The position numbers and the translations under genes are program-made. Positions 23,199-32,471 of a stretch of DNA of 34,211 nucleotides are shown piece after piece. A model generated the notes under the pieces. That model saw only the letters and a list, made by a program, of their open reading frames with translations, did not search any database and was not told where the DNA came from. The DNA is from a virus. The stretch's first letter is position 1. Each line of letters opens with the position of its first letter. The DNA is taken from the IMG/VR virus record IMGVR_UViG_3300043466_003214, positions 1 through 34,211 of that record. One strand, written 5' to 3'.

Positions 23199-23245
23199 CA
23201 CGACTATTTTAAATAAAAAAATTTAAAAAATATTTTTAAAAAAGC

Positions 23246-23275
23246 TTGACAAAACAAAAACCCGCCTTATCTTTG
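23246..23275 (+). promoter_or_regulatory. Early promoter P1 (TTG-19-TATCTTTG)
   Basis: TTG at 23246-23248, 19 bp, TATCTTTG at 23268-23275: a full match to the Bacteroidota promoter consensus. It is preceded by a poly-A/T tract (23206-23243) resembling an UP element, and is nearly identical to P2 at 25005-25034. Confidence 0.85.
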
Positions 23276-24962: not shown

Positions 24963-25004
24963 GTGCCCGGTCAAATTATTTTTAAAAAATTCTTTTAAAA
25001 AAGT

Positions 25005-25034
25005 TTGCACAAACAAAAACCCGGCTTATCTTTG
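25005..25034 (+). promoter_or_regulatory. Early promoter P2 (TTTG-19-TATCTTTG)
   Basis: TTTG ending at 25007, 19 bp, TATCTTTG at 25027-25034. The 40 bases 24995-25034 match P1 (23236-23275) at all but about five or six positions, including the poly-A tract and the shared ACAAAAACCCG spacer, so the two promoters should respond to the same factors. It drives the recombination operon from 25096. Confidence 0.85.
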
Positions 25035-26183: not shown

Positions 26184-26443
26184 GTTACATCCCGCAGCGA
26201 TACAAATACCACCTGCCCGTTGTCGGGTACAAAGGCAAAAACAACTTAGCTGAGTTTCGACAATGGGCAGAAGAGCAGGGGGTAACGTTCCAAATCGAAC
26301 AACGCCGCTTCTCCGTAAAAGTAACCTTTGCCCATTTGCCTAACGACCCGTGGACCGGTCCCGACCTTGCTGAGGCGGCAATCTACTGGGTCGGGGAAAT
26401 TATAGATTACCTTAAATCCAAAAAATCCAAATCAAATGTTTGA
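26180..26443 (+). CDS. Small hypothetical protein in recombination operon (87 aa)
   Basis: Start is GTG at 26180, overlapping the Bet/RecT stop as GTGA. Mostly a small alpha/beta protein (ALIGHTLY charged strand FQIEQRRFSVKVTF, then DLAEAAIYWVGEIIDYLKS helix), ending in a lysine-rich tail. Inserted between annealing protein and exonuclease; probably an accessory. Not recognised. Confidence 0.6.
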   Translation: MSYIPQRYKYHLPVVGYKGKNNLAEFRQWAEEQGVTFQIEQRRFSVKVTFAHLPNDPWTGPDLAEAAIYWVGEIIDYLKSKKSKSNV

Positions 26444-27131
26444 CTTCAAAATCCGCTGTTCCGCAATCGGTAAAATTATGACCGACCCCCGCAGCAAGTC
26501 GGAGGCACTCTCCGAAACCACCAAGACCTATTGTAAACAGTGGCTCACCGAACGCGTGTACGACCGCCGCATCGAAGTCACGTCCAAACAAATGGACAAA
26601 GGCACGACCATGGAAGGCGCGGCGATTGACTTTGCCGCCAACATTGTCGAACCAGGTGCGCTGTGGTTCAAAAACGAGGAAAAGTTTAGCGATGCCTACA
26701 TGGCAGGTACCCCGGACGTGCTCACCGAAACCCACGTCTATGACATAAAGTGCCCGTGGTCCTTTGCCACGTTTCCCATGTTTGAGGCCGAGCTGCCAAG
26801 CAAGGATTATTACTGGCAACTTCAGGGCTACATGGCCCTCACTGGCCGCCAGTCGGCTGCCATCCTGTACGTCTTGACCGATGCCCCCGAACACATTCTC
26901 AACGACGAAGCCCGCAAGTTGAGCTACCAGCGTGGTTTGGGCGGTAACACGGACGAAACGATCTATGAAATCCGACACCTGCTCACCTATCCGGACGTTG
27001 CCGATAGTCTCAAGTTCAAGCGCTTTGACGTGACCCGTGATGACGCTGCTATCGAAAAAATCCGGCAAAGAGTAACTTTGTGCCGTGAATACATTGCTTC
27101 GCTGATGACTGCGATTGATAATGTGGTGTAG
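26436..27131 (+). CDS. YqaJ-type recombination exonuclease
   Basis: 231 aa. PD-(D/E)XK nuclease of the YqaJ/lambda-exonuclease class: TTMEGAAIDFA with a Glu near 60, AGTPDVL with Asp near 94, VYDIKCPW with the catalytic D-x-K at ~103-105, and YYWQLQGYM at ~125-133, the conserved Q motif. It resects double-strand ends to produce the single strands used by the Bet/RecT partner upstream. Starts inside the previous gene (8-nt overlap). It closes the operon; the hairpin at 27148 follows. Confidence 0.85.
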   Translation: MFDFKIRCSAIGKIMTDPRSKSEALSETTKTYCKQWLTERVYDRRIEVTSKQMDKGTTMEGAAIDFAANIVEPGALWFKNEEKFSDAYMAGTPDVLTETHVYDIKCPWSFATFPMFEAELPSKDYYWQLQGYMALTGRQSAAILYVLTDAPEHILNDEARKLSYQRGLGGNTDETIYEIRHLLTYPDVADSLKFKRFDVTRDDAAIEKIRQRVTLCREYIASLMTAIDNVV

Positions 27132-27147: not shown

Positions 27148-27177
27148 AACCGCCGTCGGTGAACGCCTGCGGCGGTT
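27148..27177 (+). terminator. Hairpin A, terminator of the recombination operon
   Basis: AACCGCCG and CGGCGGTT form a perfect 8-bp stem with a 14-nt loop; T-rich sequence follows. Its loop contains GGTGAACGCCTGC, shared exactly with the terminase-leader terminator at 32056-32068. The next base-paired unit is the first tRNA-like gene, 6 nt downstream. Confidence 0.7.
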
Positions 27178-27182
27178 AATTT

Positions 27183-27264
27183 GACCACATGGTGCAAGGG
27201 CAGCACGATCAGTTGTTTAGGCTTGGCTTTCTGATAAACGCGGGTTCGACCCCCGCTGTGGCCA
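27183..27264 (+). tRNA. tRNA-like RNA 1, 18-nt anticodon loop
   Basis: Acceptor GACCACA/TGTGGCC (one A-C mismatch at pair 2), T8-G9, D arm GTGC-AAGGGCA-GCAC, base 26 G, anticodon stem ATCAG/CTGAT with an 18-nt loop (27213-27230) instead of 7, four-base variable region AAAC, T arm GCGGG-TTCGACC-CCCGC, discriminator A. No CCA is encoded. The stems, the TTCGACC loop and the D arm are those of a tRNA; only the anticodon loop is abnormal. It contains GTTTAGG, matching GTTCAGG in copy 2. No amino acid can be assigned. Could be an unusual tRNA, a processed tRNA with an 11-nt insertion, or a decoy. Confidence 0.6.
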
Positions 27265-27300
27265 CTTAGGATTAGGGTATTGATAGAGAGAAAGTTTGAA

Positions 27301-27326
27301 CCGCCGTAGCTGCACGGTCGCGGCGG
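27301..27326 (+). other. Hairpin B upstream of tRNA-like RNA 2
   Basis: CCGCCG and CGGCGG pair around a 14-nt loop, as in hairpin A, and are followed by GATTTTT. CCGCCG lies exactly 33 nt before the tRNA-like start in both copies (27150 to 27183, 27301 to 27334). It may be a terminator, a processing signal, or part of the RNA unit. Confidence 0.6.
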
Positions 27327-27333
27327 GATTTTT

Positions 27334-27416
27334 GGTGAGGTAGTGCAAGGGTAGCACGTTGACCGGGTTCAGGTGATACTGTGTCAAAAACGTCGGTTCG
27401 ACCCCGGCCCTCACCG
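27334..27416 (+). tRNA. tRNA-like RNA 2, 19-nt anticodon loop
   Basis: Acceptor GGTGAGG/CCTCACC (7 of 7 pairs), TA, D arm GTGC-AAGGGTA-GCAC, base 26 G, anticodon stem TTGAC/GTCAA with a 19-nt loop (27364-27382), variable AAAC, T arm GTCGG-TTCGACC-CCGGC, discriminator G. Acceptor, anticodon and T stems differ in sequence from copy 1 yet remain paired, which is covariation within the genome and strongly supports the fold. The loop carries GTTCAGG. No CCA encoded. The isotype cannot be read. Confidence 0.65.
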
Positions 27417-27464
27417 CAGAAGATACGCTTAGTTGAGATAAGTTAAGATAAAAGGAATGTAGCG

Positions 27465-27498
27465 ACAGCTGGCCGAACGGTCGGCTGTTTGTATTTTT
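27465..27498 (+). terminator. Terminator-like hairpin after the tRNA-like genes
   Basis: ACAGCTGGCC and GGTCGGCTGT form a 10-bp stem (two G-T pairs) with a GAAC tetraloop, followed by TTGTATTTTT. It ends the tRNA-like transcript; the T-rich tail contains a TATTTTTG element for the next gene. Confidence 0.7.
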
Positions 27499-27504: not shown

Positions 27505-27717
27505 ATGGATGCAATAAACAACCCCAAACATTACGGTGGCGACGCCAACCCATTTGAAGCGATTAAGGTAATCGAAGCGTGGGGCCTTGGGTTTCACCTT
27601 GGCAACGTGGTGAAGTACATCGCGCGCGCGGGTAAAAAAGACCCAGCTAAGGAGCTCGAAGACCTGAAAAAGGCGCGTTGGTATTTGGATCGGGAAATAC
27701 AGCGGAGGGGTGGGTAG
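27505..27717 (+). CDS. DUF3310 family protein (70 aa)
   Basis: INNPKHYGGDANPFEAIKVIEAWGLGFHLGN is followed by VVKYIARAGKKDPAKELEDLKKARWYLDREI; the PxHY, E..ea.gL.FHLGN, KYi.RAGkKd and eDLkKA.WYLdREI motifs define this phage family of unclear function, sometimes annotated as a nucleotide kinase-like protein. It lies just left of the iteron origin and is probably part of the replication module. Confidence 0.85.
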   Translation: MDAINNPKHYGGDANPFEAIKVIEAWGLGFHLGNVVKYIARAGKKDPAKELEDLKKARWYLDREIQRRGG

Positions 27718-27741
27718 TGGTGTTCACTTTGCTGAAAACCT

Positions 27742-27859
27742 ACAAAGTACTTTGTACAAAACGTACATAGTACTTTGTACAAAACGTACATAGTACTTTG
27801 TACAAAACGTACATAGTACTTTGTACAAAACGTACATAGTACTTTGTACAAAACGTACA
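27742..27859 (+). repeat. Five 23-bp iterons (probable replication origin)
   Basis: GTACTTTGTAC starts at 27747, 27770, 27793, 27816 and 27839: five copies with a period of exactly 23 bp. The core unit is GTACTTTGTACAAAACGTACATA with little variation; TTTGTACAAA within each is palindromic. Spacing near two helical turns places all copies on one DNA face, as for iterons bound by an initiator. The initiator gene follows within 280 bp. Confidence 0.9.
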
Positions 27860-27866
27860 AACTATA

Positions 27867-32045: not shown

Positions 32046-32080
32046 TGCCGCGGTGGGTGAACGCCTGCTGCGGCTTTTTT
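32046..32080 (+). terminator. Terminator immediately before the small terminase gene
   Basis: GCCGC/GCGGC extended by further pairs around the loop TGAACG, followed by six T ending 1 nt before ATG 32082. The loop region GGTGAACGCCTGC also occurs in hairpin A (27158-27170). Read-through or an additional promoter is needed for late genes. Confidence 0.8.
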
Positions 32081-32081
32081 A

Positions 32082-32471
32082 ATGCTAAAATCCGGCAAAA
32101 TGGACGCGACAAATGCGACAAACGATAAAAAACAGTTTTTGGAAGCGCTAAAGCGATGCGCTGGTAACGTTTCCGAGGCTATGAACCAAGTGCCTACCCA
32201 TCGAGCAACGCACTATCGTTGGCTCGAATCGGACCCCGAGTACGCCGCCGCCGTGGACGCGATTAAAGAATCGCTAATCGACCGTGCGGAGGGCGTATTG
32301 CACGGCCTAATCAGCGAGGGGAACGTCCCCGCCGTGCTGTTTTTTCTCAAGACACAGGGCAAAAAACGCGGTTACGTAGAGCGCACCGAAACGGACGTTA
32401 CCAGCGGGGGGCAACCGATTGTGTTTGAAACTAAAGTAGTCAAGAATCGCCCTCTGCCAACCGATGATTAG
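32082..32471 (+). CDS. terS: Terminase small subunit
   Basis: 129 aa; alternative ATG at 32100. The N-terminal half reads KKQFLEALKRCAGNVSEAMNQVPTHRATHYRWLES, a HTH that recognises the packaging site, then YAAAVDAIKESLIDRAEGVLHGLISEGNVPAVLFFLKTQGKKRGYVER, the usual small-terminase oligomerisation and 'FFLKTQGK..GY' pattern of such phages. It directs the large subunit to phage DNA and overlaps it by 8 nt. The direct abutment to the terminator before it suggests control of late expression. Confidence 0.85.
   Translation: MLKSGKMDATNATNDKKQFLEALKRCAGNVSEAMNQVPTHRATHYRWLESDPEYAAAVDAIKESLIDRAEGVLHGLISEGNVPAVLFFLKTQGKKRGYVERTETDVTSGGQPIVFETKVVKNRPLPTDD

What the first reader, a model, noticed from the sequence alone, without database searches (positions are those of the whole stretch)
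27148..27416. Tandem tRNA-like RNAs with 18-19 nt anticodon loops, each behind a matching hairpin
Seen directly: two units 151 nt apart, each a CCGCCG/CGGCGG hairpin followed after exactly the same distance by a cloverleaf with D arm GTGC-N7-GCAC, 5-bp anticodon stem, AAAC and a TTCGACC T arm. Acceptor, anticodon and T stems differ in sequence between units but stay paired, so the fold is conserved. Both anticodon loops are 11-12 nt too long and share GTTYAGG (27215-27221 and 27367-27373). Bacterial tRNA introns are normally large group I introns, so this size is unexpected. Inference: a decoy for anticodon-targeting defence nucleases, a spliced or atypical tRNA, or an RNA that borrows tRNA processing to expose a guide-like loop.
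Basis: partly seen in the sequence, partly recalled or inferred. Interest (0 to 1): 0.85.

Follow-up and report, generated by a model that had tools for sequence, protein, structure and literature searches.

The report
Hairpin-coupled, non-decoding phage tRNA-like RNAs
Behind its DNA-recombination exonuclease gene, this probable Bacteroidota phage carries two RNAs that fold like transfer RNAs but have the wrong decoding end, each directly behind a stable hairpin; relatives keep only the end that tRNA-maturing enzymes recognise, so they are probably RNA-cutting signals rather than tRNAs for making protein.

Summary
Two tRNA-like units (27183-27264, 27334-27416) have perfect 5-bp anticodon stems with 18- and 19-nt loops, each 7 nt behind a GC-rich hairpin. 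Relatives confirm the cloverleaf: over six units 98.4% of pair cells are standard, and all five anticodon-stem pairs show two-sided changes. The shared GTTYAGG is not conserved.

The enlarged loop is one state of a variable lower half. At the same place (exonuclease, hairpin, short gap, unit), relatives carry units with 6-nt, 4-nt, 17-nt, about 27-nt and about 53-nt loops, or only an acceptor/T-arm minihelix of 39 nt. Constant over 23 units are the acceptor/T half (97.8% paired; shuffles 66.5%), the TTCRANY T loop and C74 (23/23), as in host tRNA genes. A strong hairpin directly upstream is enriched over ordinary tRNAs (lineage-collapsed p = 0.003) and, inside this family, has weaker U-tracts than ordinary terminators.

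Best reading, partly shown and partly inferred: an RNA-processing module. Host RNase P and RNase Z cut at the tRNA-like element, giving the exonuclease mRNA a hairpin-protected 3' end, comparable to MALAT1/mascRNA. Decoy, guide scaffold and remnant remain open. No RNA data exist.

The parts
26436..27131 (+). RecE/YqaJ-type recombination exonuclease gene, upstream partner of the array
   Evidence: PHROG 5715 exonuclease, E 4e-50
27148..27177 (+). Hairpin H1 (AACCGCCG...CGGCGGTT); the GC core is 27150-27175
   Evidence: -19.9 kcal/mol, 0 of 200 shuffles as stable
27176..27182 (+). 7-nt U/A-rich gap between hairpin core and tRNA-like unit 1 (inferred RNase P leader)
   Evidence: sequence; the same 7-nt gap before unit 2, in L084, L085, L092 and L122, 6-7 in L083, L123, L124, L125
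27183..27264 (+). tRNA-like unit 1, cloverleaf with 18-nt anticodon loop (27213-27230), discriminator A27264, C74 at 27265
   Evidence: RF00005 45.1 bits; covariation
27299..27328 (+). Hairpin H2; the GC core is 27301-27326, then GATTTTT
27334..27416 (+). tRNA-like unit 2, cloverleaf with 19-nt anticodon loop (27364-27382), discriminator G27416, C74 at 27417
   Evidence: RF00005 49.8 bits; covariation
27464..27489 (+). Hairpin H3, terminator-like, closes the array before the DUF3310 gene (27505-27717)
   Evidence: terminator scan; identical in L084 and L085; DUF3310

Best explanation
Each unit is a hairpin + about 7 nt + tRNA-like RNA-processing module. Transcription runs from the exonuclease gene through the hairpin, whose U-tract is poor, into the tRNA-like element. 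Host RNase P cuts at the 5' end of its acceptor stem, so the upstream mRNA ends with a stable hairpin and a short U-rich tail. RNase Z cuts after the discriminator and frees the downstream RNA and the tRNA-like body. Only the upper half (acceptor stem, T arm, R73-C74) is needed for this. The lower half no longer decodes and is free to expand, shrink or vanish, with base pairing kept where it exists. Shown here: conserved fold, invariant upper half, variable or absent lower half, adjacent hairpin at a nearly fixed short distance within this phage family, C74 as in host tRNA genes, weaker U-tracts. Inferred: transcription, cutting by RNase P and RNase Z, protection of the exonuclease mRNA.
For: Upper half over 23 units: 97.8% of pair cells standard, shuffle mean 66.5% and maximum 72.5%, C74 in 23/23, T loop TTCRANY in all, while the stretch between acceptor and T stem varies from 8 to 106 nt. 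Two relatives have only the acceptor/T minihelix, still 6-7 nt behind a hairpin, with a compensatory acceptor change (GGCCGG/CCGGCC, GGCCAG/CTGGCC). C74 is also invariant in 12 host tRNA genes of a Bacteroidota genome that mostly do not encode CCA. Upstream hairpin of at most -6 kcal/mol: 23/27 odd units against 12/39 ordinary tRNAs; collapsed to lineages at -9, 7/11 against 6/39, p = 0.003. U-tract: mean 5.0 T of 8 before tRNA-like units against 6.8 at hairpins without one, p = 0.0002. L083 unit 2 has lost its hairpin and directly follows unit 1. The module also sits elsewhere in L122. The NEAT1/MALAT1 precedent shows a conserved T hairpin with a variable hairpin II (PMC12941219).
Against: No RNA or cleavage data. 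Processing alone would not require the anticodon stem, yet all five pairs covary in the close relatives, and part of the unit-1 loop (GGCTTGGCTT) is the same in three genomes, so the lower half may have its own role there. A hairpin that really terminates would leave the tRNA-like element untranscribed. Some odd tRNA-like elements (L104, L070) have no hairpin. The hairpin and U-tract comparisons were chosen after seeing the data, the U-tract hairpins were picked by hand, and family members are not independent.
Confidence: 0.45

Rival explanations
1. Decoy or bait: the stable tRNA-like body with its oversized anticodon loop soaks up tRNA-cutting defence nucleases or toxins, and the loop changes in an arms race.
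For: The unit-1 anticodon arm is the fastest-changing part of the locus while staying paired (L084-L085: 7/28 differences in the arm against 6/77 just upstream). Phage tRNAs with altered anticodon loops have been proposed to evade tRNA-cutting enzymes (PMC10264068).
Against: Homologous modules in L124 and L125 have no anticodon arm and L123 has a 4-nt loop. No nuclease or target is known here. The hairpin coupling is not explained.
Confidence: 0.2
2. Degenerate tRNA morons: former tRNA genes that landed behind terminators and are decaying, with no function of their own.
For: L026-like phages differ in presence or absence of the unit at one site (L026/L027/L029 against L028/L030/L033). A near-normal tRNA-Gly is carried elsewhere in L124 and L092. 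The anticodon is lost.
Against: Compensatory changes in acceptor, anticodon and T stems, 97.8% paired upper halves, and persistence at the same locus in most relatives.
Confidence: 0.15
3. Small-RNA scaffold: the tRNA body protects a guide-like loop that pairs with a phage or host RNA.
For: In unit 1 the 10-nt loop stretch GGCTTGGCTT is identical in three genomes while the stem around it changes; unit 2 is unchanged in three.
Against: No complementarity of 10 nt or more to the phage's own sequence apart from self-matches, and nothing beyond 9-nt matches in 16S/23S rRNA loci of a Bacteroidota genome. Loops differ completely between units and relatives. The true host is unknown.
Confidence: 0.12
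4. Functional tRNAs whose 11-12 extra loop bases are removed as an intron.
For: A chromosomal Bacteroidota tRNA with an insert of about 45 nt in its anticodon loop lies next to the RNA ligase gene rtcB (L172, L173).
Against: No consistent anticodon under any reading, no archaeal-type splice motif noticed by eye, no RNA ligase among the phage genes examined, and lower halves too short for any anticodon arm in relatives.
Confidence: 0.05

Closest known systems
MALAT1-mascRNA and NEAT1-menRNA 3'-end modules (vertebrates)
   Same: tRNA-like element directly behind a stabilising structure with a U-rich part; T hairpin constant, anticodon hairpin variable in NEAT1; there shown to be cut by RNase P and RNase Z (PMC12941219)
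   Different: bacterial virus; a simple GC-rich hairpin instead of a triple helix; cutting not shown here; lower half can be enlarged or absent
Ordinary phage tRNA genes (Rfam RF00005)
   Same: acceptor, D and T arms, elbow bases, R73-C74; scores above the Rfam cut-off
   Different: no 7-nt anticodon loop, no definable anticodon, coupled hairpin, minihelix relatives
tRNA punctuation of mitochondrial transcripts (own knowledge)
   Same: tRNA structures separate neighbouring messages by excision
   Different: there the excised elements are working tRNAs; here they cannot decode
Bacterial Y RNAs (YrlA; own knowledge, operon named in PMC7790460)
   Same: bacterial tRNA mimics of unusual shape
   Different: no Rfam match to YrlA; open acceptor end; hairpin upstream
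Intrinsic terminators
   Same: GC-rich hairpin followed by T-rich stretch; same hairpin type closes other genes of this phage
   Different: poorer U-tract and a tRNA-like element starting 6-7 nt later

Membership tests
tRNA (RF00005) | score above the curated cut-off with acceptor, D, anticodon and T arms | tested here: met
   45.1 and 49.8 bits against 29
tRNA (RF00005) | 7-nt anticodon loop with U33 and a definable anticodon | tested here: not met
   18- and 19-nt loops; ARAGORN calls disagree
tRNA (RF00005) | aminoacylated and used in translation | not testable with these tools
   needs RNA experiments
MALAT1-type RNase P-made 3' end | stabilising structure directly 5' of a tRNA-like element | tested here: met
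MALAT1-type RNase P-made 3' end | triple helix with A-rich tract | tested here: not met
   GC-rich hairpin with 5-7 nt tail only
MALAT1-type RNase P-made 3' end | cut by RNase P and RNase Z | not testable with these tools
   only indirect support: upper half and C74 conserved
tRNA with group I or other intron | intron structure in the anticodon loop that can be removed | tested here: not met
   no Rfam intron match in the window; loops of 4-19 nt in most relatives
YrlA-type Y RNA | match to the Rfam model | tested here: not met
   no YrlA match in the window or the nine loci searched
YrlA-type Y RNA | linked Ro60/TROVE protein | tested here: inconclusive
   not among the window proteins scanned, but not every protein was scanned
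Intrinsic terminator (hairpins H1, H2) | GC hairpin followed by a strong U-tract | tested here: inconclusive
   strong hairpin, but 5 T of 8 against 6-8 at other hairpins of the family

The most novel reading that the evidence does not exclude
Phages (probably of Bacteroidota) use a widespread non-decoding RNA module, a protective hairpin plus a tRNA-like element reducible to an acceptor/T-arm minihelix, to have host RNase P and RNase Z make defined, protected mRNA 3' ends: a bacterial counterpart of the MALAT1/NEAT1 3'-end system, with freely evolving cargo in place of the anticodon arm.
Probability: 0.35. Interest if true: 0.8.

Novelty: new variant of a known kind. Interest (0 to 1): 0.62.

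Why it matters
Phage tRNA genes are usually explained by codon supply or by evasion of tRNA-cutting defences. A conserved family that keeps only the half seen by tRNA-maturing enzymes and sits behind a hairpin would be a different use of the tRNA fold in bacteria: RNA-end formation. It would also explain why annotation tools report phage tRNAs with odd or undefined anticodons, and it gives a directly testable prediction about transcript ends.

Tried and rejected
Loop as anti-Shine-Dalgarno binder: AGGTGAT in unit 2 and GGAGGTGAT in L083 unit 1 look like it, but unit 1 lacks it and the Chryseobacterium 16S end reads CATCTCATTT. Antisense to phage RNA: matches of 9 nt only, apart from self. Complementarity to rRNA: matches of 8-9 nt only. 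Kissing of the loop GTTYA with the hairpin loop TGAAC: absent in L084 unit 1 and in L083. GTTYAGG as a shared functional motif: not conserved. Related units in isolated phages of INPHARED: none for the window units; one for the L026 type. Host by DNA matches in 395 Bacteroidota genomes: only short weak hits, two of them over promoter-like stretches. First pattern scan used a wrong spacing and was repeated. A search for tRNAs with enlarged loops in 395 Bacteroidota genomes, limited to one D-arm type, gave three hits: two rtcB-adjacent tRNAs and one that looks like a fused or tandem tRNA.

Full report
Observation. Rfam's tRNA model matches both above its cut-off. ARAGORN gives Lys/Asn without introns and Ser/Ser with introns allowed, so no anticodon is defined. 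The window is a virus record of 34211 bases with a 127-bp direct terminal repeat, so probably a complete genome. Promoter-like repeats that include TATCTTTG, and the bacterial genomes found with relatives of the exonuclease, suggest a Bacteroidota host.

Close relatives. Scans with the exonuclease, the large terminase, the D-arm pattern and RecT gave L083, L084, L085 and L092 with the pair at the same place, and the more distant L122-L125. On six alignable units 98.4% of pair cells are standard (shuffles 82.6%), 11 of 21 pairs change on both sides, and all five anticodon-stem pairs do so. Unit 1 shows it best: ATCAG/CTGAT, TTCAG/ATGAA (four pairs), CCCAG/TTGGG. The GTTYAGG stretch is not conserved. 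The unit-1 anticodon arm changes faster than its surroundings.

The lower half is variable or absent. L083 unit 1 has a 6-nt loop; L092 unit 2 a loop of about 27 nt with an inner hairpin; L123 a 4-nt loop; L124 unit 2 a loop of about 53 nt. L124 unit 1 and L125 consist only of acceptor stem, 8-nt linker and T arm, still 6-7 nt behind a hairpin. L122 lacks the unit after the exonuclease but has one elsewhere in its genome, again with a 7-nt gap. Other lineages with odd lower halves behind a hairpin: L026/L027/L029, L067/L072/L073, L100 and two chromosomal places in Chryseobacterium. L104 and L070 have none.

The upper half is constant. Over 23 units 97.8% of acceptor and T-stem pair cells are standard against 66.5% after shuffling; the T loop is TTCRANY in all; position 74 is C in all although positions 75 and 76 vary. 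Host tRNA genes behave alike: C74 in 12 of 12, CCA mostly not encoded. In the L092 units one bulged C in the T stem was left out for this count. L070, whose position 74 is T, was not among the 23.

The hairpin. Strong hairpins within 10 nt upstream occur at 23 of 27 odd units and 12 of 39 ordinary tRNAs. Two of the 23 (L083 unit 2, L104 unit 2) are really the T arm of a preceding tRNA-like element. Collapsed by lineage at -9 kcal/mol it is 7 of 11 against 6 of 39, p = 0.003. Hairpins of the same loop type close other genes in this phage family with 6 or more T in the next 8 bases, while those in front of tRNA-like units average 5.0. These comparisons were made after the pattern was seen, the hairpins for the U-tract comparison were picked by hand, and the family members are related.

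Interpretation. What is kept is what RNase P, RNase Z and the CCA enzyme recognise; what is lost is what the ribosome reads. With the adjacent hairpin this suggests an RNA-processing module that leaves the exonuclease mRNA with a hairpin-protected end. MALAT1 and NEAT1 are the described parallel: cut by RNase P and RNase Z, T hairpin conserved, anticodon hairpin variable in NEAT1 (PMC12941219). The conserved anticodon stem in the close relatives is not explained by processing alone; it may keep the enlarged loop from misfolding the acceptor, or have a second role such as bait for tRNA-cutting defences (compare PMC10264068).

Limits. No transcript data, unknown host, few relatives, single-sequence folding that does not give the cloverleaf for either window unit, and most fold evidence from one phage family. 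Eight literature searches in the open-access library showed no description of such phage elements; subscription papers were not searchable.

Noticed in passing
L172 and L173 (rtcB and the tRNA at about 1490-1602): Chromosomal Bacteroidota tRNA with an insert of about 45 nt in the anticodon loop, directly downstream of an rtcB RNA-ligase gene (PF01139). The insert shares a motif with a hairpin just behind the tRNA, in permuted order.
   Followed up: partly
window 27741-27860: 23-bp tandem repeats (GTACTTTGTACAAAACGTACATA) after the array. L092, L084 and L122 have tandem repeats at the same place with entirely different units, possibly iterons.
   Followed up: no
window 32047-32074: Copy of the H1-type hairpin with a good T-tract but no tRNA-like element, just before the gene at 32082.
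   Followed up: partly
L092 9498-9571 and L156 3816-3888 (minus): Near-normal tRNA-Gly overlapping the end of a coding frame, without hairpin; in L092 it has A instead of U at position 33.
   Followed up: partly
L067 1338-1370: Rfam DUF805b RNA motif directly behind the 117-nt tRNA-like element, and another copy at 773-805.
   Followed up: no
L105 501-546 and flanks (636-kb phage): tRNA-like sequence with a hairpin inserted in the D loop.
   Followed up: no
window 23222-23275 and 24981-25034: Two 54-nt copies, 87% alike, of a promoter-like stretch ending in TATCTTTG.
   Followed up: no
L104 523-697: Two tandem tRNA-like elements in a 60.8-kb podovirus; the first shares its anticodon region with L026 but has a different, still paired acceptor.
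   Followed up: partly
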